A stretch of 64,000 nt of DNA from Saccharomycopsis phalli (Eukaryota; Ascomycota; Saccharomycetes; Ascoideales; Saccharomycopsidaceae): contig CP073218.1 of assembly GCA_020342235.1 (NCBI GenBank), positions 496,001 through 560,000 of the forward strand, given 5' to 3'. Numbering within the stretch: the stretch's first letter is position 1; each line of letters begins with the position of its first letter. The position numbers and the translations under genes were made by a program. Of the stretch, positions 21,995 to 53,364 are shown piece by piece. The notes beneath the pieces are model-generated. The model saw nothing but the letters and a program-made list of their open reading frames with translations, searched no databases and was not told the DNA's origin.

Positions 21995-24019
21995 TTAATC
22001 TAGCTCTGTAATATTATCTGCTTTCTCCACGGACTCAAAGTCCAAAATCTCTATCCACGCCTCGTCATTCTTCTTCACTGCCGCGATGCAGGTCTTGTCA
22101 TTGAATTTAACCTGCCACACAAACGAGCTGTCGTGAATCAACTCCCTAATCTTCTTACCGGTCTTTATATCCCATAGGTGTAGCGTGGTGGAGCCAAAGA
22201 TTACACGGTTGTCGTTGTTCTCCACGCAAGTGATTGGCCCCGAAGGGCTGTTGAACTCGTACTTTTGCTCCACGTCTTCCGGGTCCCATATGCGGACGGT
22301 TGAGTCGGCGGCGGCGGTGACCAAGTTTTTGGGCGAGACCTGGATAAGGCCAACGAGCGACTGGTGGGCTTTCAACGTCTTCAAATTCGTGCCTGTCTCA
22401 ATGTCCCAGATGTTGATTGTGTTGTCGAGGGACCCCGATATGATGCGGTTGCGCAACTTGTCAATGGCAAGGGCATACACTTTGCGGGTGTGCTCCGAGA
22501 GCACATGGGTGCAAACTCCCGTTCTGGCGTCCCAGACACGGACGTTAGTATCATAGGACCCCGAGACGATGACCTTTCCATATGCAGCGACGGTGCGGAC
22601 TGCGTCTGAATGTCCCCTGAGGCAGCGGATGAAGTATTTGCTGCCCGGGGTCATTTCAATCGGCCGTTCCAAGTCGCTCATCTCCTGCTGGTACTCGGCA
22701 ATCTCGTCGTCCGAGTAGGTGATGCCGTACATTTCGTTTAGCACCGGGTCGTCCTTGACCATGGACAAGTCCCACATGTTCAAGTTGGAGTCGCGCGACC
22801 CGCTCACGAGTATTGGCCGCTGGGGAAACACCACGGGTTGGTGCCGGGAGTCGTGGCCAATGACAACGGGTTCGATTATTTCCATACAGCGCACCGTGGC
22901 ATTGTGCCCGCGGAGCACGTGTGTGCACTTGCCGGTTTTCAAGCTCCAGACGCGCAATGTCTTGTCGGTTGCGGCACTGACCAAGGTGTCGCCAATGTAC
23001 TTCAAGCCCCAGACTTCGCCCTCGTGGCCTTCGAGCAGCATGAGCTTGCGCCCTGTTCGGGTGCAAAAGACGTTGACCACGTTGTCGTTGCCTCCGCTGA
23101 CGATTTTGTCCTCGTCAAACTGGAGGCAGGTGATCAAGTCCTTGCCATGCGCCTTGAACGAGATGTTGCGTGGGCGGAAGCTGCGCGAGCTCCAGTTCTT
23201 GTTAATGAGCGCCTGCTTCTTGTAAAGCAAGCGGAAGAAGTTCGGCTCGAAGCAGGCCCGAGTCACGCTGTCGCAATGTGAGTAAAGTGACGCGTCGACG
23301 GAGGAGTAGTCGCGCACCAACGCCTCGAGATTCCGCGGCAGCTGTGCGGGCTCGTTGATGAGAAGATTGTCCTTGGCGATCAAGTCCTGCCAGACCTTGC
23401 TGTTTTTGTTGACGATCGCACCCCAGTTCTTGCACACCATCCCGGCCAGCACAAGCGACCGGTAGTCGAGATTTGACAACACGTTGCTCGCAAGCTCTGT
23501 TGGGAGATTCGAGAGAAGGTCAAACAGGAGCCGTTTGCTGATGTGGTTCACCAACGTCGAGAGCACGGTCCGGTCCGTCTGCTGGAGTAGCTTGTACACC
23601 AACGCGTTCCTCGTGTTGCGCGACATGTGCTTAAAGAGCTGCTGCGCCCGCGTCACCGAGTCGCTCATCTCCTCATCCTCTGCATCCAGCATGCTCGATT
23701 GTACTGGGGATGCCGACGGTGAAGGTAACGGCAACTTGCTCCGCTTCTGGTCGACTTTCGGCCGCTTGCAGTCCTCGCTGGCCTCTGGAGAACCCTTCCG
23801 CTTGCGGGACTCCACAGGCGGATCGACTGCATCGATGTCGATGGAGAGCGGGTGGATAGACACAGTGTCTCTGATCTCAGGCTCCTTGTTGGTCAGCTCT
23901 GCAAACAAGTTGGCCAAGATATCGTCCTCCAAGGCATCAAAGATGTACGGCGTCGCGTCGCACAAAAGCGGGAACTTCTTCGGCCGTGCGTCCTTCAAGT
24001 ACTTGGCTTCGTCCGACAT
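21995..24019 (-). CDS. CDC4: F-box WD40 substrate receptor of the SCF ubiquitin ligase
   Basis: Protein of 674 residues if started at ATG 24019 (MSDEAKYLKD). The frame is open to 24313 but without an ATG at its head, and that part overlaps the divergent FRA1 start, so the short form is preferred. Order: a variable N-terminus with a basic KRKGSPEASEDCKRPK stretch (likely nuclear signal), a helical dimerisation region, an F-box near 160-205 (LPTELASNVLSNLDYRSLV, Skp1 binding), then WD40 repeats (GHEGEVWGLKY, GHNATVRC, GHSDAVRTV, DAVRTV...WDARTG, IISGSLDNTINIWD). Cdc4 binds phosphodegrons and destroys Sic1, Far1 and Cdc6. A FAR1-like gene is present at 50.7-53.4 kb. Confidence 0.95.
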   Translation of the reverse strand: MSDEAKYLKDARPKKFPLLCDATPYIFDALEDDILANLFAELTNKEPEIRDTVSIHPLSIDIDAVDPPVESRKRKGSPEASEDCKRPKVDQKRSKLPLPSPSASPVQSSMLDAEDEEMSDSVTRAQQLFKHMSRNTRNALVYKLLQQTDRTVLSTLVNHISKRLLFDLLSNLPTELASNVLSNLDYRSLVLAGMVCKNWGAIVNKNSKVWQDLIAKDNLLINEPAQLPRNLEALVRDYSSVDASLYSHCDSVTRACFEPNFFRLLYKKQALINKNWSSRSFRPRNISFKAHGKDLITCLQFDEDKIVSGGNDNVVNVFCTRTGRKLMLLEGHEGEVWGLKYIGDTLVSAATDKTLRVWSLKTGKCTHVLRGHNATVRCMEIIEPVVIGHDSRHQPVVFPQRPILVSGSRDSNLNMWDLSMVKDDPVLNEMYGITYSDDEIAEYQQEMSDLERPIEMTPGSKYFIRCLRGHSDAVRTVAAYGKVIVSGSYDTNVRVWDARTGVCTHVLSEHTRKVYALAIDKLRNRIISGSLDNTINIWDIETGTNLKTLKAHQSLVGLIQVSPKNLVTAAADSTVRIWDPEDVEQKYEFNSPSGPITCVENNDNRVIFGSTTLHLWDIKTGKKIRELIHDSSFVWQVKFNDKTCIAAVKKNDEAWIEILDFESVEKADNITELD

Positions 24020-24075
24020 GTATACCTGGGTGTTTACTGACCATTGTGGAAGCAATTTCCAACTCGGATATACCT

Positions 24076-24081
24076 CACGTG
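24076..24081. promoter_or_regulatory. CACGTG box between CDC4 and FRA1
   Basis: A perfect CACGTG in the 213-bp divergent intergenic stretch, 57 bases from the CDC4 ATG and about 150 from FRA1. Confidence 0.4.
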
Positions 24082-24232
24082 ACTGCTTGCTGGTACCAGT
24101 TGGGCAGCATGCATGTAATAGGTGAGACCGTGCGCTAGATTGCATGTTACAAGTGATATATTCATCGAGCTGTTCTCCAGTGTTTGTTGTGTGGCATTTC
24201 TTCAATTGGCCGAATAGAGGAAAATACACAGT

Positions 24233-26416
24233 ATGGACCCCGAGATAATATCCTCCGAAAGCTCTTTGGCCAAGCCTTCGTCCCTTGGCACTTCGTTTGA
24301 TTCCGCCAGACAAGACAAAACTACAAAAGCGAACAAGTCACCATTGTTAGCCTGCTTTCCCGCGGTGTTTAACAAGATTTCAAACAAAAAGTCTAGCAGA
24401 CTCTCAGAGAAAAGCCCCACAGACAATGTCCCTAGCTGCCTGCTGGATGGGCAAGTGGAATGCAACGTCAACAGCGTAATTAGCTTTGGCACCGATGAGA
24501 TCATCACCGCAAAACACAGCTTACAAGCCGATCGCGACAACGACACCCAGATCTTCGCCAAGGAAACCGACCCAGCTTTGCAAGGAAACACCACAAAGTC
24601 CCGCGTAGACACCTCAAAACGTCTCCTCAGACTCAGACAGCTCATGAAAGTCAACTCCATTGACGTCTATGTCGTGCCTTCTGAGGATGAGCACCAGAGC
24701 GAGTACACCGCGCCTAGCGACAACCGCAGAGAATACATATCTGGGTTCAATGGCTCAGCTGGTGTCGCCGTGGTGTCGCTATCCGGTGCAGTATTGTCCA
24801 CCGACAGCCGGTACTTTTTGGAGGCCGAGAAGCAGCTCGACGAAAACTGGGAGTTGATCAAGCAGGGCACAGACGGCAGCATCACATGGATGCAGTGGGC
24901 GTTTCAGCAATTGAAACAGCTGAAGAACAAGACGTTGTCCTTGGACCCAAAGTTGGTGTCCTTAACCTCGGGGAACTTTCTCAAGAAGCGGTGCGAGGAG
25001 ACCGACTGCGTGTTCAAGCCGTTGCTCAATAACCTCATTGATGAAATATGGGACTCCCAGCCGGAACGACCGCTGGAGCCAGTGTACGAGTTGCCGTACA
25101 AGTTCAGCGGAGAGTCGTCCAATAAGAAGATTGCCAGAATACGCGAGGCATTGGAGGCCGAGAACGCCACGGGGATCATTGTCACAAAGTTGGACGAGAT
25201 TGCCTGGACGTTGAATTTGCGTGGGCATGACTTTGAGACGTCGCCCTTGTTTTTCTCGTACTTAATCATCACCCATGAGGAGGTACGCTTCTACATCAAA
25301 TCGGAGCAGTTGTCCAAGGGCGTCGAGAGCTACTTGCATGTGGAGATTGCAAACTTGAAAATCAAAAACTACACCTCCTTCTGGATCGACTTGTCTGCGC
25401 TAGCCATCAACTTCGAGAACTACTACTACATTCTCTCCACCGATGTGTCCTACGGGCTCATCTCCCGCTTGTCCGTCGTCAACTACAAGCTCTCCAACTT
25501 GATCGAGTTGCTCAAGAGCGTCAAGAACCTGACGGAGATATACGGCATGAAGCTATCGCAAATCAAGGACGGTGTCGCCTTGGTCCGCTACTTTGCCTGG
25601 CTCGAAGAAAACTTGCTCGGCTCCTCCCGCACCATCAATGAATACCAAGGTACACTAAAGCTCGCCTACTACAAGTCGCTCATGTCAAACTACAGAGGCG
25701 TGAGCTTCCCCACAATATCCTGCTCAGGCGCAAATGCTGCGTCAAACCACTACGAGCCGACTATCGACAAAAACTCGCCCATTGATCCGTCGCAAATATA
25801 CCTTTGCGACGCGGGGTCACAGTATTTGGATGGTACCACCGACATCACCCGAACACTACACTTTTCCCAGCCTACAGCAGAGGAGAAACTAGCGTATACT
25901 GCCGTGCTCCGTGGTCACTTGGCCATCGCCAGAGCCCAGTTCCCAATCTCTAGCACCGGAGCACTGCTTGATTCCATTGCTCGTGCTCCCTTGTGGGAAG
26001 AGGGTCTCGACTACGGACATGGTACTGGTCATGGTATCGGGTCGTTCTTGAGCGTCCATGAAGGCCCTATATATTTTGGACGCAACTCAACGTTCCAAGC
26101 GGGACAGATTGTCAGTGACGAGCCTGGTTATTACAAGAACTACGAGTTCGGCGTGCGTCTCGAAAGCGACTTGGAAGTAGTAAAGAACAAGCACAAGAAG
26201 GATTTAAAGGGCCGGTCGTTCTTGCGGTTCGAGTACCTCACATTGGTGCCGTTTAGCTTGAATCTTATCGATAAAAGCAAGTTGTCGCAGTTTGAAGTCA
26301 GTTGGATCAACAAGTACCACAGTCACGTAAGAAACACCTTGACCCCATACTTGATGAAATTTAACGATCTCCGGGCAGCCAAATGGTTGTACAAGGAAAC
26401 AGTCCCAATACCTTAG
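24233..26416 (+). CDS. FRA1: Xaa-Pro aminopeptidase P family protein
   Basis: Protein of 727 residues from ATG 24233. An extended N-terminus of about 120 residues is followed by two creatinase-like N domains (RLLRLRQLMKV, GFNGSAGVAVVS, STDSRYFLEAEKQLDENWELIKQG) and the M24 metallopeptidase fold. The metal ligands are visible: LCDAGSQYLDGTTDITR (two Asp), GHGTGHGIGSF (His), SDEPGYY (Glu) and RFEYLTLVP (Glu). It should cleave the first residue before proline in the cytosol. The S. cerevisiae relative Fra1 works with Fra2 and Grx3/4 to hold Aft1 in check in iron signalling, so an iron role is possible but not shown here. Confidence 0.9.
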   Translation: MDPEIISSESSLAKPSSLGTSFDSARQDKTTKANKSPLLACFPAVFNKISNKKSSRLSEKSPTDNVPSCLLDGQVECNVNSVISFGTDEIITAKHSLQADRDNDTQIFAKETDPALQGNTTKSRVDTSKRLLRLRQLMKVNSIDVYVVPSEDEHQSEYTAPSDNRREYISGFNGSAGVAVVSLSGAVLSTDSRYFLEAEKQLDENWELIKQGTDGSITWMQWAFQQLKQLKNKTLSLDPKLVSLTSGNFLKKRCEETDCVFKPLLNNLIDEIWDSQPERPLEPVYELPYKFSGESSNKKIARIREALEAENATGIIVTKLDEIAWTLNLRGHDFETSPLFFSYLIITHEEVRFYIKSEQLSKGVESYLHVEIANLKIKNYTSFWIDLSALAINFENYYYILSTDVSYGLISRLSVVNYKLSNLIELLKSVKNLTEIYGMKLSQIKDGVALVRYFAWLEENLLGSSRTINEYQGTLKLAYYKSLMSNYRGVSFPTISCSGANAASNHYEPTIDKNSPIDPSQIYLCDAGSQYLDGTTDITRTLHFSQPTAEEKLAYTAVLRGHLAIARAQFPISSTGALLDSIARAPLWEEGLDYGHGTGHGIGSFLSVHEGPIYFGRNSTFQAGQIVSDEPGYYKNYEFGVRLESDLEVVKNKHKKDLKGRSFLRFEYLTLVPFSLNLIDKSKLSQFEVSWINKYHSHVRNTLTPYLMKFNDLRAAKWLYKETVPIP

Positions 26417-47476: not shown

Positions 47477-50400
47477 ATGAAGCCCAGTAAATTCTTTGTC
47501 CCCACAAGTCACTCTCCGTTGGCCTGTGACAACATGAGGTCCAGACATAATCACACAAAGAATAAAGGCCAAGAAATTACCACCACCACTTTCAAATGGA
47601 AGGATTCATTCGCCGGAAAGCTGGAGGAGATCTCTCCATTTGAGGGACCAGAGTCTACTTCTTTGAAGCTGGCTGGAGATGGCATATCATATGAACAGGA
47701 GCATGAAGAAAACCTATCCGTCTTGAGTGACTTGTTTGAGACCTTTCAAAGATATTCCCTCTTTCTGGGGGCGCCAAAGTCTTTTTATTCCGCACTTGTC
47801 GCTAATGTCAGGCTTGTGACACATCATCCGCAAGAATATATCCTACAATTTGAAGAAGAGTCCAAGTCAATGTATGTGCTTCTCAAGGGAAAGGTGGCTG
47901 TGACCTCGCCTGATGGGGAGGCAGTTCACGCAGTCTTGGAGTCCGGATCCTACTTTGGGGAAATTGGCGTTTTATTTTCACGTCCTCGAACAGCTACTGT
48001 GATTGCAAAGACCAAGACTCTACTGGCTGTGCTAACCAAGGAGAGTTTGGACACAATTCTTCCGAAATACCCTTCGGTGGAACGGGTGATACGAGATGAA
48101 GCGCAAAAGAGATTGTCCATGCAAAATAAACGAAGCAAGAACCTCAGTGCGCTGCTAAATGCCGCTGAGTCGCCCAGTGCGGAATTTCATCAATCCAGTC
48201 AGAGTCTAGAAAACGAAAGAGAACGGAAAAAGTCGATAATTCTCCCCAGCATTGCAAATTTCAACTCTGGGAATTCCATCAAGGTCACTGACCCAGAGTT
48301 TCAACCATATACTTCTAAGCAGGATGTTCCAGCAGTTGATGACGAAATACCCGAGCTCGTGGGCCCCGTGAGGAGATTCTGGGAGAAGTTGAACTTGCCA
48401 AATATCATTTCATTTGATACTTTCATGAAGTTTTCTATCGACTCGTCAAAATACGTGATAAAGAAGCCTGATGAATTTATCTTTCACAAAGGAGATACCA
48501 GAAAGGACGTGTACTTTATTCTAGAAGGATACGTGGAAGTTTTGGACTCCATCGAGATTTATTTCAAGAGCAGTGACTTGCAAGGCACAAAATTTGAGAA
48601 GATCCTTGCTACCTTGGGTCAGTATGACTACTTTGGCGAAATGGCATTCATACACTATTTGGCATCTTTAAGTCAGCCTACCAGTAGAGAACTGGACAAA
48701 CACCATGTCCGATCGGCACATATCAGAGCAAAAACTGGCGTGAAGTTGCTCATCTTTCCATTTGAAAAGTTGACAGAGTTGTGCGCCCAATATCCTGAAT
48801 TGTATACTGAGTTGCATAAAGTGGCTGACAGAAGAACATACCAGAACAAATTATTTACTGATCAAGGTAATCTAGACTTACGGTCAGAGACTCCTCTGCC
48901 AGTTACTCCTTCGTCTAAAGACATGCACTCAGGTGTTAAATGGAATAGCAGCTTTCTCTCTGGAGGTAACATATACGGCACACCCGACAGCTGCACTACT
49001 ACAGAAACTTCGTCGGTGCTTTCTTCAAACCAGAGAAGATCCTCCATAGCGACGGTTCTTTCAGTTGATCCTAAGGATTCAGTCAGACATCGAACCTATT
49101 CAATTGCAGAATTTCCTAAAAAGAGAAGAATGTCAACCATGGATTTTTCTGATTTACCAAGTCGCAGAGATCCAATTATTTTATCTTTACCTTCTTTGAA
49201 TCCTCTAACTCCATCATTGAACTCGTTTCCAGGTCAGCAGATTGCACCAAGAGGAAAGCCATTTCAATATGTGACACATCAGAAACGTATGAAATTAAAC
49301 TCTGTCAGCTTAGGAAGAAGAAGTGTGTCATTGCTTCGATACAATACAACTCTTCCCGACGATATTCTTATTAAAGTTTTTGAGTATCTTGACTTGAAGA
49401 CACTAATCAGATTGAGGGCTGTGTCTCATAGATGGAGACAGGTGTTATATTTTGCACCAACGTTATTTGAAACACTAGACTTGTCGATTTACAATATTCA
49501 GCTAACGGATGAAGTGCTTATTTCTATAGCGGACTTTGTGGGACCAAGAGTAAAAGTGTTGGATATATCTGGCTGCTACCATATTACGGACAAAGGTTTC
49601 AGCTACTTGATCAACGAGATTGGCATCAATGGGTGTTTGAAGGTTCTAAGGATGAGATCCTTGTGGAATATTAGTGCAATGTCGATCATGGATGTGACAG
49701 CCCCGAGTGTTGGAAAGGTTTTAGAGGAAATAGACTTGTCCAACTGTAACAAGGTACGAGATGAAGTGATAGAACGGTTAATTGGAAATTCCTCTGAACC
49801 ATGGGAGATGGATTCGTTTCGCATGGCCATGAGATTCAGTCAGGGGAATTTTGGTTGCATCAATTTGAAGCGGTTGAATTTCAGTTATTGCAAGCATCTA
49901 ACTGACAAGACAATGTTCTACATTGCGGATCACATGAATGATCGTCTAGAATATTTAAACATACGAAGATGCACCACAATCACTGACCAAGGTTTCTCCA
50001 GCTGGGATTACAAGCGCTTTCCAAGATTGACAACTTTGATTTTATCTGATTGCACATTTTTGACGCAAAAATCGATTTCGGCCATTGCTTCCTCATGTGG
50101 TTCACTTAAGGAATTGGACCTTTCGTTCTGCTGTGCCTTGGATGAGAATAGTTTGGAAATTCTAAGACTAGGATGTCCTTACTTGGAAACACTCAACTTA
50201 TCCTTCTGTGGCAGTGCGGTTAGTGACAATAGTCTTCTCTCCTTGTCCCTTTCGCTAATGTACCTACTGAGACTAATTCTCAAAGGTTGCATTAGAGTTA
50301 CTAGAGCCGGAGTGGATATATTGTTATCGGGATGCTGTCCTCTTAAGTATTTGGACATATCCCAGTGTAAATATCTGCACATGTATCCTGGTGGTATTGA

Positions 50401-50488
50401 GGCAGTTATGTTACCTGTTAATGAAGGGACTCGGTCGTCCTTCATCACCACATCTGCTGAGAAAGGCGTGGTGGAAATTGTTTTATAA
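47477..50488 (+). CDS. dual cyclic-nucleotide-binding, F-box, leucine-rich repeat protein
   Basis: Protein of 1003 residues from ATG 47477. CNBD 1 (about 90-215) has the phosphate-binding cassette FGEIGVLFSRPRTATV, with E162 and R171 both in place. CNBD 2 (about 310-455) has FGEMAF (E388), but its arginine (R412, in VRSAH) is pushed away by about 15 extra residues. A linker of about 170 residues follows, then an F-box (about 625-660: LPDDILIKVFEYLDLKTLIRLRAVSHRWRQVL) and AMN1/Grr1-like leucine-rich repeats to about 970 (VKVLDISGCYHITDKGF, LEEIDLSNCNKV, LKELDLSFCCALDENS). It should bind Skp1 and choose substrates for ubiquitination, possibly under nucleotide control. I know no S. cerevisiae protein with this order; ligand and substrates are unknown. 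Confidence 0.92.
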   Translation: MKPSKFFVPTSHSPLACDNMRSRHNHTKNKGQEITTTTFKWKDSFAGKLEEISPFEGPESTSLKLAGDGISYEQEHEENLSVLSDLFETFQRYSLFLGAPKSFYSALVANVRLVTHHPQEYILQFEEESKSMYVLLKGKVAVTSPDGEAVHAVLESGSYFGEIGVLFSRPRTATVIAKTKTLLAVLTKESLDTILPKYPSVERVIRDEAQKRLSMQNKRSKNLSALLNAAESPSAEFHQSSQSLENERERKKSIILPSIANFNSGNSIKVTDPEFQPYTSKQDVPAVDDEIPELVGPVRRFWEKLNLPNIISFDTFMKFSIDSSKYVIKKPDEFIFHKGDTRKDVYFILEGYVEVLDSIEIYFKSSDLQGTKFEKILATLGQYDYFGEMAFIHYLASLSQPTSRELDKHHVRSAHIRAKTGVKLLIFPFEKLTELCAQYPELYTELHKVADRRTYQNKLFTDQGNLDLRSETPLPVTPSSKDMHSGVKWNSSFLSGGNIYGTPDSCTTTETSSVLSSNQRRSSIATVLSVDPKDSVRHRTYSIAEFPKKRRMSTMDFSDLPSRRDPIILSLPSLNPLTPSLNSFPGQQIAPRGKPFQYVTHQKRMKLNSVSLGRRSVSLLRYNTTLPDDILIKVFEYLDLKTLIRLRAVSHRWRQVLYFAPTLFETLDLSIYNIQLTDEVLISIADFVGPRVKVLDISGCYHITDKGFSYLINEIGINGCLKVLRMRSLWNISAMSIMDVTAPSVGKVLEEIDLSNCNKVRDEVIERLIGNSSEPWEMDSFRMAMRFSQGNFGCINLKRLNFSYCKHLTDKTMFYIADHMNDRLEYLNIRRCTTITDQGFSSWDYKRFPRLTTLILSDCTFLTQKSISAIASSCGSLKELDLSFCCALDENSLEILRLGCPYLETLNLSFCGSAVSDNSLLSLSLSLMYLLRLILKGCIRVTRAGVDILLSGCCPLKYLDISQCKYLHMYPGGIEAVMLPVNEGTRSSFITTSAEKGVVEIVL

Positions 50489-50694: not shown

Positions 50695-53364
50695 CTAAGG
50701 TAAACAAAGCGAGAACACTAATTCATAGCTGCTCCTTATGGCGTCTTCGGGGTTGTGTATGAATAAGGAAGCTATGCTCAGGAGTATGAAGCTCAAGTAT
50801 TCGACATATAGGACGTTGCTTGAGGACATGTCGCGTTCTATAACGAAGTCCTTGGCAGAGTTTACTATGATTTTGCAATCTTTTGCAATTGCATAAATGT
50901 GGCTAATGCATTCGTGCAATACGTCCAGCGAGTGGTCATTTTTTAGGCCAATCGCTCTTAGTAATTGCTTTGCCACTACCAACTCCACCTGGTTTTTAAC
51001 AAACTCCGGGTCCCTGCTGCTAAAGAGTGGCTGACAAAATATTGGAATCTCGTATTCAGATGTGATGGACGTTCTAAAGTCAGAGTGCAACAGATTATGC
51101 TCCTGGTCGTGCCTCCCGCTGAGAAAGTTTACTTGAATGGCCATGTCACTTGAATGTAATGTATTTCCAATTGAATATTCGCACCGGACAGCGGGTAAGG
51201 TGAATCCGTCTTCTGATGGAAACAAGTTGGAATTTTCCAAGACCTGTCTGAGTTTTCGCGTGACATTCAACCGGATATTTATTGGAATAGTCTTTGAATA
51301 TCCAGGGTATATGTCATTGACGTCTATTTCTAGCGATTTCTCATCGTTGTAGTGTACTTCGAGACTCTCGTTATGCGGATCTTTGAGAGCACCTTCTCCC
51401 CAAGTGTTTCTGGAAATGGAGATATTTTCTGACTTCAAGCTGGTGAGATTGACCTTCAATCGGGGCACTGTGATCTTTCTGACGTGGGTTTTCCTCCATT
51501 CTGCAATATCCAATGCCTCGAGAGAGCTGATTTTCGAGAAGGAACTTCCAAAAGTAATGGAGTTTTCATTGATGACTCTCTGAATGATATCAATATAGTA
51601 GTCGTCGAAACTGTCGTTTATCAAGTACAATGAGAGATTAAACCTGTACTTTATCATTATCTTTTCCAACAAGGTCGGAAATTTGGTCTGCTGCAACTTA
51701 TCCTGGTAAGAAAGTGCCTCTGGTTTGGTAGTGAAGCAGTCGTTGATGATGACAAGTCGATTAACAGAATCTGTATCAAGGTCTCCCCAGAACTCCAACA
51801 ACTTGCTGGCACTTTCCAAGTAGTACACCATCTGATCTAGGTTCGTGATTGAAGTGGAAGGCCTTTGGACACTTAGACACTCGAAATGCTGTTCGAACGA
51901 CTCTGGGGTTGAGAAACCGGTCAAAAAGGATGATTTGGGTCCTGCTGGATCATTGTACAAGTACACCACGCCTAGTTTATCATATTCTGGGTTCAAGCAA
52001 GTGATGATTTCGAATATTTTATTTTTGACCAAATTGCGGTACTGGCTGTTGGATAACTTCAGGTTGTTGATTAGGGAGATCCCCACGATTAGGTTCAATG
52101 GGAGAGGAACAGGCGAAGGGATCAATCTCTTGAGGAACGGGATGGGCAAGTCCAAGTTGCTAGCGAGCAATTCCTGCATGTGTCTGACTTCCTCTGGGAT
52201 TAAGCGGCCATTGTGGATTAGTGACTGGGGGTTTGCTGACATTTGAATCAAAGGTACGGGCTCACAGAATAGGCCGAGGACTATCTTGGTGAGGTAGTTG
52301 TACCACTTTTTGATGATGGTCTTGACAGGTGAGCGTAGAGTGAGTGTGGGGAGGTTGATTGAGGACAAGTTCAAAGTCATTGTATGGTCGTCGATGAGGA
52401 TCACTGAAGCAAGGTCGTGCTGATGCTTGATTCTGGCGACGACGGAGTCTGGGTTGGACAAGATCAAGTCGTTTTCAAAGAGGTAGCAGTTGAAGACATC
52501 CCACTGGTTGATTGCGATTTCCACCTGGAACAAGTCGAACATGACGATTTTCTGGCCTTGCATCATTGGAAGTTCGCCGTCCTGGAGCATGCTGAGAGTC
52601 TCAATCAAGTGAGCGGAGATCTCCTGTCTCCGTTTGTCCTCGAGGATGAGTTCGTCCTGGGACTGGTTACCATTGTCGACTGGGTATTCGCCCATTTGGA
52701 TGTGGAGCACGCAAGGCAAGGTGTAAGTCTTTTTGAGCAGGTCGATGGACAATCTGCGAGTCTCTGGTATTAGGCGGACGGATGGGGTAACTGTTTCGTC
52801 CAAGAACGACTCGTTGTATTCTATAAAGGAGCAAGGCATGTTGAATTGGGAGGATACCGGGGAGGAAGATTCGATTGGGTGAGGCTGGATGGTTTCTTCC
52901 AAGGAGAGCTCGTTGATGTAGTCTTCCAAGTGCCAGTCGTTGGGCAAGGATATGGAATAGAGGCTGTTTGCAATGGAGGTGGTTTTCTTGCATTGGCTGC
53001 AGAACAACTGGTTATTGTTGACTGCGACTGCCATGAAGCACAGGTAGTGACTGTCATGGCTGCAAGCGAATGTGACGATTTCCTCACTATCGAGGAGGAC
53101 CAGGTACACATCCTTACAGATGCTGCAGGATGTCAGGGAGAATCTGGGCTTTGTTGCACGGGAGCTACTGGAGATCAATGTGTTTGTTGACGACAGGGTG
53201 GAAGTTCTCTTGTATGAGTCTGACCACAGGGCGTCGATGTTGTCCAGCGGGGAGACGGGTGATGCGGGGGAGCCAAAGAGCAGGCTGTTTGTGAGCTTGA
53301 TTTTGGAGAGATCTTTTCTGAAGGAGCCTTTTGATCTGAAGGAGTAGATGGAGGAGCTAGGCAT
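50695..53364 (-). CDS. FAR1: Far1/Ste5-family scaffold with RING-H2, PH-like and VWA-like regions
   Basis: Protein of 889 residues from ATG 53364. A RING-H2 motif is complete: C80, C83, C101, H103, H106, C109, C122, C125; in Far1/Ste5 this binds G-beta. A PH-like region follows near 255-375 (KIVMFDLFQVEIAINQWDVFNCYLFENDLIL). Then comes an alpha/beta region near 420-620 (VGISLINNLKLSNS, NRLVIINDCFTT) like the VWA of Ste5/Far1. The N-terminal RSKGSFRKDLSKIKL could be an amphipathic membrane helix. The family links pheromone receptor signalling to MAPK, polarity and cell-cycle arrest. Far1 is preferred over Ste5, since the Candida Ste5 counterpart (Cst5) is reported to be much shorter. Several CTG codons occur. 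It converges on the CNBD-F-box gene 206 bp away. Confidence 0.75.
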   Translation of the reverse strand: MPSSSIYSFRSKGSFRKDLSKIKLTNSLLFGSPASPVSPLDNIDALWSDSYKRTSTLSSTNTLISSSSRATKPRFSLTSCSICKDVYLVLLDSEEIVTFACSHDSHYLCFMAVAVNNNQLFCSQCKKTTSIANSLYSISLPNDWHLEDYINELSLEETIQPHPIESSSPVSSQFNMPCSFIEYNESFLDETVTPSVRLIPETRRLSIDLLKKTYTLPCVLHIQMGEYPVDNGNQSQDELILEDKRRQEISAHLIETLSMLQDGELPMMQGQKIVMFDLFQVEIAINQWDVFNCYLFENDLILSNPDSVVARIKHQHDLASVILIDDHTMTLNLSSINLPTLTLRSPVKTIIKKWYNYLTKIVLGLFCEPVPLIQMSANPQSLIHNGRLIPEEVRHMQELLASNLDLPIPFLKRLIPSPVPLPLNLIVGISLINNLKLSNSQYRNLVKNKIFEIITCLNPEYDKLGVVYLYNDPAGPKSSFLTGFSTPESFEQHFECLSVQRPSTSITNLDQMVYYLESASKLLEFWGDLDTDSVNRLVIINDCFTTKPEALSYQDKLQQTKFPTLLEKIMIKYRFNLSLYLINDSFDDYYIDIIQRVINENSITFGSSFSKISSLEALDIAEWRKTHVRKITVPRLKVNLTSLKSENISISRNTWGEGALKDPHNESLEVHYNDEKSLEIDVNDIYPGYSKTIPINIRLNVTRKLRQVLENSNLFPSEDGFTLPAVRCEYSIGNTLHSSDMAIQVNFLSGRHDQEHNLLHSDFRTSITSEYEIPIFCQPLFSSRDPEFVKNQVELVVAKQLLRAIGLKNDHSLDVLHECISHIYAIAKDCKIIVNSAKDFVIERDMSSSNVLYVEYLSFILLSIASLFIHNPEDAIRSSYELVFSLCLP

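What the first reader, a model, noticed from the sequence alone, without database searches (positions are those of the whole stretch)
47477..50488. Two cyclic-nucleotide-binding domains fused to an F-box and leucine-rich repeats: a candidate nucleotide-gated ubiquitin ligase
Seen: CNBD1 keeps a full phosphate-binding cassette (FGEIGVLFSRPRTA, E162 and R171). CNBD2 keeps FGE but has about 15 extra residues before its likely Arg (R412). An F-box and about 300 residues of Amn1/Grr1-like LRR follow. Known: CNBDs of this type in Bcy1 bind cAMP, and F-box-LRR proteins choose SCF substrates. Inference: ligand binding could switch substrate capture, a cAMP output independent of protein kinase A. I know of no S. 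cerevisiae protein with this order. It sits next to the FAR1-like gene, although convergent orientation is weak evidence for a link.
Basis: partly seen in the sequence, partly recalled or inferred. Interest (0 to 1): 0.78.

Follow-up and report, generated by a model that had tools for sequence, protein, structure and literature searches.

The report
FbxA-type F-box protein with cAMP-binding domains
A yeast gene encodes a ubiquitin-ligase adaptor that carries two intact-looking cyclic-nucleotide-binding domains; it belongs to a fungal family (FbxA) already linked to sugar repression, but whether it senses cAMP directly is untested in anything we found.

Summary
Window 47477-50488 (+) is a 1003-aa ORF with two cNMP-binding domains (CNBDs), an F-box and about 300 residues of leucine-rich repeats. 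The architecture is not new: this is an ortholog of FbxA/Fbx19, listed here from many yeasts and filamentous Ascomycota. In Aspergillus nidulans and Neurospora that gene is linked to carbon catabolite repression, and A. nidulans Fbx19 comes down in Skp1/cullin pull-downs and is mainly nuclear. I found no test of nucleotide binding.

Added here: the phosphate-binding Glu and Arg of CNBD1 are invariant in 198 of 198 aligned proteins, and kept in 118 of the 120 best relatives found through the F-box/LRR half alone. CNBD1 models at about 2 A from cAMP- and cGMP-bound structures. A largely disordered arm before the F-box is enriched in PKA-type sites (421 found, 35 expected by shuffling). The in-genome contrast with other CNBD proteins is only partial.

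Best reading: an SCF substrate receptor with a direct cAMP-sensing head, possibly also a PKA substrate. The receptor part is near certain; the cAMP part is a good, unproven hypothesis. The FAR1 link is unsupported.

The parts
47477..50488 (+). whole ORF, FbxA/Fbx19-type CNBD-CNBD-F-box-LRR protein, 1003 aa
47744..48121 (+). CNBD1 (residues about 90-215)
47954..47995 (+). phosphate-binding cassette 1, residues 160-173, with E162 and R171
   Evidence: E162 and R171 in 198 of 198; 118 of 120 in the set found by the F-box/LRR half only; short helix 162-167 in the model
48389..48841 (+). CNBD2 (residues about 305-455)
   Evidence: Pfam PF00027 second stretch; model
48632..48718 (+). phosphate-binding cassette 2, residues 386-414, with E388, insert and R412
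   Evidence: E388 in 194 of 198, R412 in 197 of 198
48842..49342 (+). arm before the F-box (residues 456-622), largely low-confidence in the model, rich in RRx[S/T] motifs in the family
   Evidence: 421 motifs in 198 proteins against 35.1 expected by shuffling; pLDDT below 50 over 465-563
49034..49045 (+). RRSS, residues 520-523, strict PKA-type motif
49124..49135 (+). RRMS, residues 550-553, strict PKA-type motif
49316..49330 (+). RRSVS, residues 614-618, where many relatives have RRRSSVL before the F-box; departs from strict RRx[S/T]
49349..49447 (+). F-box (residues 625-657)
   Evidence: Pfam F-box-like 2.8e-10, F-box 1.4e-9; genome-wide hit at the same place
49472..50377 (+). leucine-rich repeats (residues 666-967)

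Best explanation
It is the FbxA/Fbx19 ortholog: the substrate receptor of an SCF ubiquitin ligase. Shown in an ortholog: association with SCF parts and a link to carbon catabolite repression. Inferred: CNBD1 (and in most relatives CNBD2) binds cAMP, since the six-frame search of this genome found one class III cyclase match. Occupancy changes what the CNBD head touches, so that substrate presentation or nuclear location of the receptor follows cAMP without PKA. The flexible arm before the F-box carries PKA-type sites, so PKA may add a second, phosphorylation-based input. I put SCF receptor at about 0.93, CNBD1 binding a cyclic nucleotide at about 0.7 (lowered from 0.75 because the in-genome contrast proved partial), and control of ligase output by that binding at about 0.5.
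Against: I found no binding assay. A kept Glu/Arg pair shows a cyclic-nucleotide-type pocket, not its ligand or effect: the second matched domain of the Nte1-like protein here also keeps GE and an Arg at +9 (LGE..KRPS), and Nte1 is not known to me as a cAMP receptor (recall). CNBD2 loses its Glu in some relatives (4 of 198; 6 of 120). The arm between CNBD2 and the F-box is low-confidence in the model, so coupling is not visible; domain placement was not tested. In the A. nidulans collection screen the five 2DG hits did not include fbx19, and my term search found no mention of fbx19 in that text (PMC6016232), although PMC6838226 cites it for fbx19. The N. crassa deletion secreted 624.5 +/- 83.4 against 575.5 +/- 36.8 mg/L, no clear effect. 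No phenotype that I saw ties FbxA to cAMP. In this protein the pre-F-box site is RRSVS, not RRx[S/T]. Such sites could also serve other basic-directed kinases or nuclear import; shuffles do not correct for common descent.
Confidence: 0.5

Rival explanations
1. The CNBD pair is a protein-docking or substrate-binding module, or binds another small ligand; it keeps the pocket for that and cAMP plays no part. The protein is a constitutive or phosphorylation-controlled SCF receptor.
For: No binding data found; a trypanosome PKA is cAMP-independent and takes nucleoside analogues (PMC6440977, start of abstract in the listing; titles of 6flo and 6hyq). Low-confidence arm between CNBD2 and the F-box. 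The Nte1-like second CNBD keeps Glu and Arg too.
Against: E162/R171 invariant in 198 of 198. The PDB title of 6h4g, a T. brucei mutant that includes T318R, suggests that the canonical Arg matters for the ligand (title only, cut short); here the Arg is present.
Confidence: 0.26
2. cAMP acts on FbxA only through PKA, which phosphorylates the RRxS sites in the arm; the CNBDs recruit the PKA catalytic subunit or have lost signalling.
For: RRx[S/T] enrichment is strongest in the arm, 421 observed and 35.1 expected, against 1/12.0 in CNBD1, 5/16.2 in CNBD2, 23/28.9 in F-box/LRR, 30/7.4 in the linker between the CNBDs and 31/15.8 in the N-terminus; hydrophobic residue after the S/T in 260 of 421. N. 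crassa NCU08642 has 5 phosphopeptide variants in a table (sites not seen).
Against: Does not explain the invariant pocket. Which kinase acts is unknown.
Confidence: 0.2
3. Ordinary SCF receptor with domains that mean nothing: a lineage-specific fusion or a mis-joined gene model.
For: None found beyond the lack of assays.
Against: Single uninterrupted ORF with the same domains in listed rows from yeasts to Aspergillus and Fusarium.
Confidence: 0.03

Closest known systems
FbxA / Fbx19 (A. nidulans AN4510; N. crassa NCU08642, fbx-19)
   Same: Same domains in the same order; P0081, named 'protein fbxA' by NCBI, E 2.1e-128 over the full-length search; 38.6% identical over 738 aligned columns.
   Different: CNBD2 cassette has no insert in P0081; many of the filamentous rows also carry PF16643. 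I read of no function in yeasts.
PKA regulatory subunit Bcy1
   Same: Two CNBDs with FGE and Arg at +9; first Foldseek row of the pair, 3of1.
   Different: Has an F-box and LRRs; 59 residues of pLDDT below 50 lie between the CNBDs (231-289); the pair aligns to 3of1 at rmsd 17.6 A over 243 residues, so the domain placement differs or is not predicted well; no RR ahead of CNBD1.
FBXL2 / FBXL17 / Skp2 (F-box-LRR SCF receptors)
   Different: No CNBDs (general knowledge).
Epac
   Same: A non-PKA cAMP effector that joins CNBD to another output (general knowledge); 4f7z is in the Foldseek list.
   Different: Its output is a Ras-family exchange factor, not an SCF receptor.

Membership tests
FbxA/Fbx19 family | CNBD-CNBD-F-box-LRR order, full-length similarity | tested here: met
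FbxA/Fbx19 family | single gene of this kind in the genome | tested here: met
   Of 7 PF00027 and 11 PF12937 matches only the frame at C7 543822-545447 has both; six-frame search, counts are lower bounds
FbxA/Fbx19 family | role in carbon catabolite repression or xylanase control | not testable with these tools
   reported for A. nidulans and N. crassa (passages)
SCF F-box protein | F-box over the curated cut-off | tested here: met
   F-box-like 40.3 bits, cut-off 24.3
SCF F-box protein | binds Skp1 | not testable with these tools
   A. nidulans Fbx19 interacts in the SkpA/CulA pull-downs
cyclic-nucleotide-binding protein | cassette Glu and Arg in at least one CNBD | tested here: met
   E162, R171; E388, R412
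cyclic-nucleotide-binding protein | binds cAMP or cGMP | not testable with these tools
   no assay found
PKA regulatory subunit | RR-type inhibitor site ahead of the first CNBD (feature recalled) | tested here: not met
   no RR in residues 1-89; the genome's Bcy1 is another gene, L002

The most novel reading that the evidence does not exclude
FbxA is a second direct cAMP receptor of Ascomycota: an SCF ligase whose receptor subunit binds cAMP itself and is also phosphorylated by PKA, so it reads the same messenger twice and turns glucose/cAMP state into protein turnover. It may have escaped notice because Saccharomyces seems to lack it.
Probability: 0.35. Interest if true: 0.85.

Novelty: new member of a known kind. 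Interest (0 to 1): 0.55.

Why it matters
Fungal cAMP signalling is usually taught as acting through PKA alone (general knowledge). If FbxA binds cAMP, ubiquitin-ligase activity becomes a direct cAMP output, and the reported sugar-repression phenotypes of fbxA deletions gain a molecular explanation. The test is simple because deletions exist in two model fungi and the two residues to change are known.

Tried and rejected
Rejected: chance or fusion artefact (same domains in relatives). Rejected as support: the neighbour at 50695-53364 (-), convergent, only sub-threshold RING matches, no PDB match. Biased conservation, because the homolog search needs shared words: controlled by searching with residues 620-1003 only. 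Mended on re-check: I had taken the in-genome contrast as clean; one search shows that the second matched Nte1-like CNBD keeps GE and Arg at +9, so it is partial. Not settled: distribution outside Ascomycota, since each protein search lists only its best 120 (of 290, 320 and 643 matches) and most rows bear no organism; I saw no non-Ascomycota name, which proves nothing. Absence from Saccharomyces rests on seeing no Saccharomyces name in those lists, while Lachancea, Kluyveromyces and Eremothecium are named, and on recall. Synteny was not tested. VIA-align on the full-length model filled with LRR rows, so the CNBD pair was modelled alone; its VIA rows again fill with CNBD1, and CNBD2 was not folded or searched by itself. 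Pocket geometry could not be computed: no coordinates were given out. Selections: alignment A1 holds 83 of the 120 homologs then known plus the query; A2 holds 57 of 197 plus the window piece, and a few residues at its tail align to LRR columns, which I left. Paper searches used 10 of 10. One NCBIfam scan named only CRP-like and other families far below their cut-offs.

Full report
OBSERVATION. Window 47477-50488 (+) is one open frame of 1003 aa. Pfam finds two cNMP-binding stretches (2.1e-29), an F-box (625-657) and LRRs over their cut-offs. By sequence the best PDB match is FBXL2 (6o60_C, 5.4e-27), then a many-domain Toxoplasma protein with CNBDs (9ya0_MA, 5.1e-21) and the SthK channel CNBD (4d7s, 1.3e-17).

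WHAT IT IS. The full-length homolog search gave 290 proteins at E 1e-10 or better, 120 listed, with names from yeasts and filamentous Ascomycota and mostly the same Pfam set; a few rows, such as P0026 and P0040, lack an F-box model. One, P0081, is named 'protein fbxA' of A. nidulans. A search with residues 90-480 of a Lachancea relative gave named rows from Lachancea, Kluyveromyces, Eremothecium, Hanseniaspora, Ogataea and Komagataella among others (120 of 320 listed). FbxA's identity with this family is supported along a second path: N. crassa NCU08642 is called a cyclic nucleotide-binding domain protein in PMC4545925 (table row), is Fbx-19 = AN4510 in PMC6838226 (passages), and Fbx19 is FbxA in PMC9744329 (passage). 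So this is a new member of the known FbxA family.

WHAT IS KNOWN OF THE FAMILY. [quoted passage not shown] It is in the mainly nuclear group, expressed from a gpdA promoter (passages). PMC6838226 (passages): the N. crassa deletion grows less on arabinan and pectin and is allyl-alcohol sensitive; the A. nidulans fbx19 deletion has reduced xylanase activity on xylose. PMC8359064 (passages) reports, citing Colabardini 2012, reduced xylanase and 2-deoxyglucose resistance of the fbxA mutant. Colabardini 2012 itself is not held; that it showed Skp1 binding is recalled. Against: the five 2DG hits of PMC6016232 do not include fbx19 and a term search found no fbx19 in that text (passages); the N. crassa deletion has no clear secretion change (PMC4545925, section 5 part 1 of 2).

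IS THE POCKET REAL. In 198 aligned proteins (the 197 relatives listed, plus this one) E162 and R171 are invariant, E388 is kept in 194 and R412 in 197. The 13 columns invariant in all 198 are G138, D146, L154, F160, G161, E162, G164, R171, A173, E202, R212, G351 and G387; 11 lie in CNBD1 and 6 in its cassette. Because the search needs shared words, I repeated it with residues 620-1003 only: of the 120 listed (643 matches), 118 keep both E162 and R171; the two others are an 836-aa and a 600-aa protein. Most of these 120 were also in the earlier lists, so this is a control for bias, not a new sample. In the same genome Bcy1 keeps FGE with Arg at +9 twice; the SulP/STAS-like protein reads FGS and the first matched Nte1-like CNBD has no Glu, but the second keeps GE with Arg at +9 (LGE..KRPS). 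That contrast is therefore partial and tells that the pair alone does not prove binding. CNBD2 is less strict: the Glu is lost in 6 of 120, among them named Debaryomyces rows, and the Glu-Arg spacing runs from 9 (66 of 198) through 13-20 (125 of 198) to 23 here and more in two rows.

The arm between CNBD2 and the F-box is rich in RRx[S/T]: 421 in 198 proteins against 35.1 in composition-preserving shuffles; 190 of 198 have at least one; 137 have one within about 30 residues of the F-box (21.3 expected). Other regions, observed/expected: CNBD1 1/12.0, CNBD2 5/16.2, F-box/LRR 23/28.9, linker between the CNBDs 30/7.4, N-terminus 31/15.8; so the other two loose regions are also enriched, less so. 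In a set thinned to below 60% identity, 36 of 41 have a site in the arm and 32 of 41 near the F-box. After RR, S/T stands at +2 in 76% of 383 RR ends (22% background), then often V/L/I. The arm has 12.7 sites per 1000 residues, 26 other ORFs of the window 5 in 14,535 aa (ORFs taken mechanically). Shuffles do not correct for common descent. This looks like PKA consensus (recalled), but other kinases or nuclear import are possible. This protein has RRSS 520 and RRMS 550 in the arm, and RRSVS at 614.

HOW IT PROBABLY WORKS. F-box to Skp1, LRR to substrate, CNBD head to cyclic nucleotide, arm to kinase. One PF00211 cyclase match in a six-frame search makes cAMP the likely ligand. Gating across a loose arm would have to work by changed contacts, location or avidity, not by a rigid lever. 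Shown: domains, conservation, fold. Reported for orthologs: SCF association, nuclear location, sugar-repression phenotypes. Inferred: ligand, gating, PKA input.

NOVELTY. In some searches I found no paper listed that proposes FbxA as a cAMP effector; I read only passages of a few, and the library holds open-licence papers only. The family is known and its CNBD is in print as a gene product name; the idea of direct cAMP input appears open. On re-checking, the odds for CNBD1 binding went from 0.75 to 0.7 because of the Nte1-like domain; the others stand.

Noticed in passing
47477-50488, residues 456-622: Conserved enrichment of PKA-type RRx[S/T] sites just before the F-box across the family.
   Followed up: yes
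21995-24313 (-): A second F-box gene in the window, with WD40 repeats; Cdc4/Met30-like by domains.
   Followed up: partly
   Followed up: partly
L007 1408-3228 (-): SulP/STAS-like frame (by eye) whose C-terminal CNBD matches PF00027 below the cut-off and has Ser for the cassette Glu.
   Followed up: partly
L004 1501-1746 (+): Nte1-like protein: its second matched CNBD keeps GE and an Arg at +9, which is unexpected for a protein not known to me as a cAMP receptor.
   Followed up: no
relatives P0048, P0051, P0204, P0205, P0206: CNBD2 cassette Glu replaced by Ile; two of the five are named Debaryomyces, hinting at loss of the second pocket there.
   Followed up: partly
literature (PMC4545925): The Trichoderma reesei ortholog (Trire2 78268) is listed among the mutation-hit genes of strain RUT-C30.
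   Followed up: no
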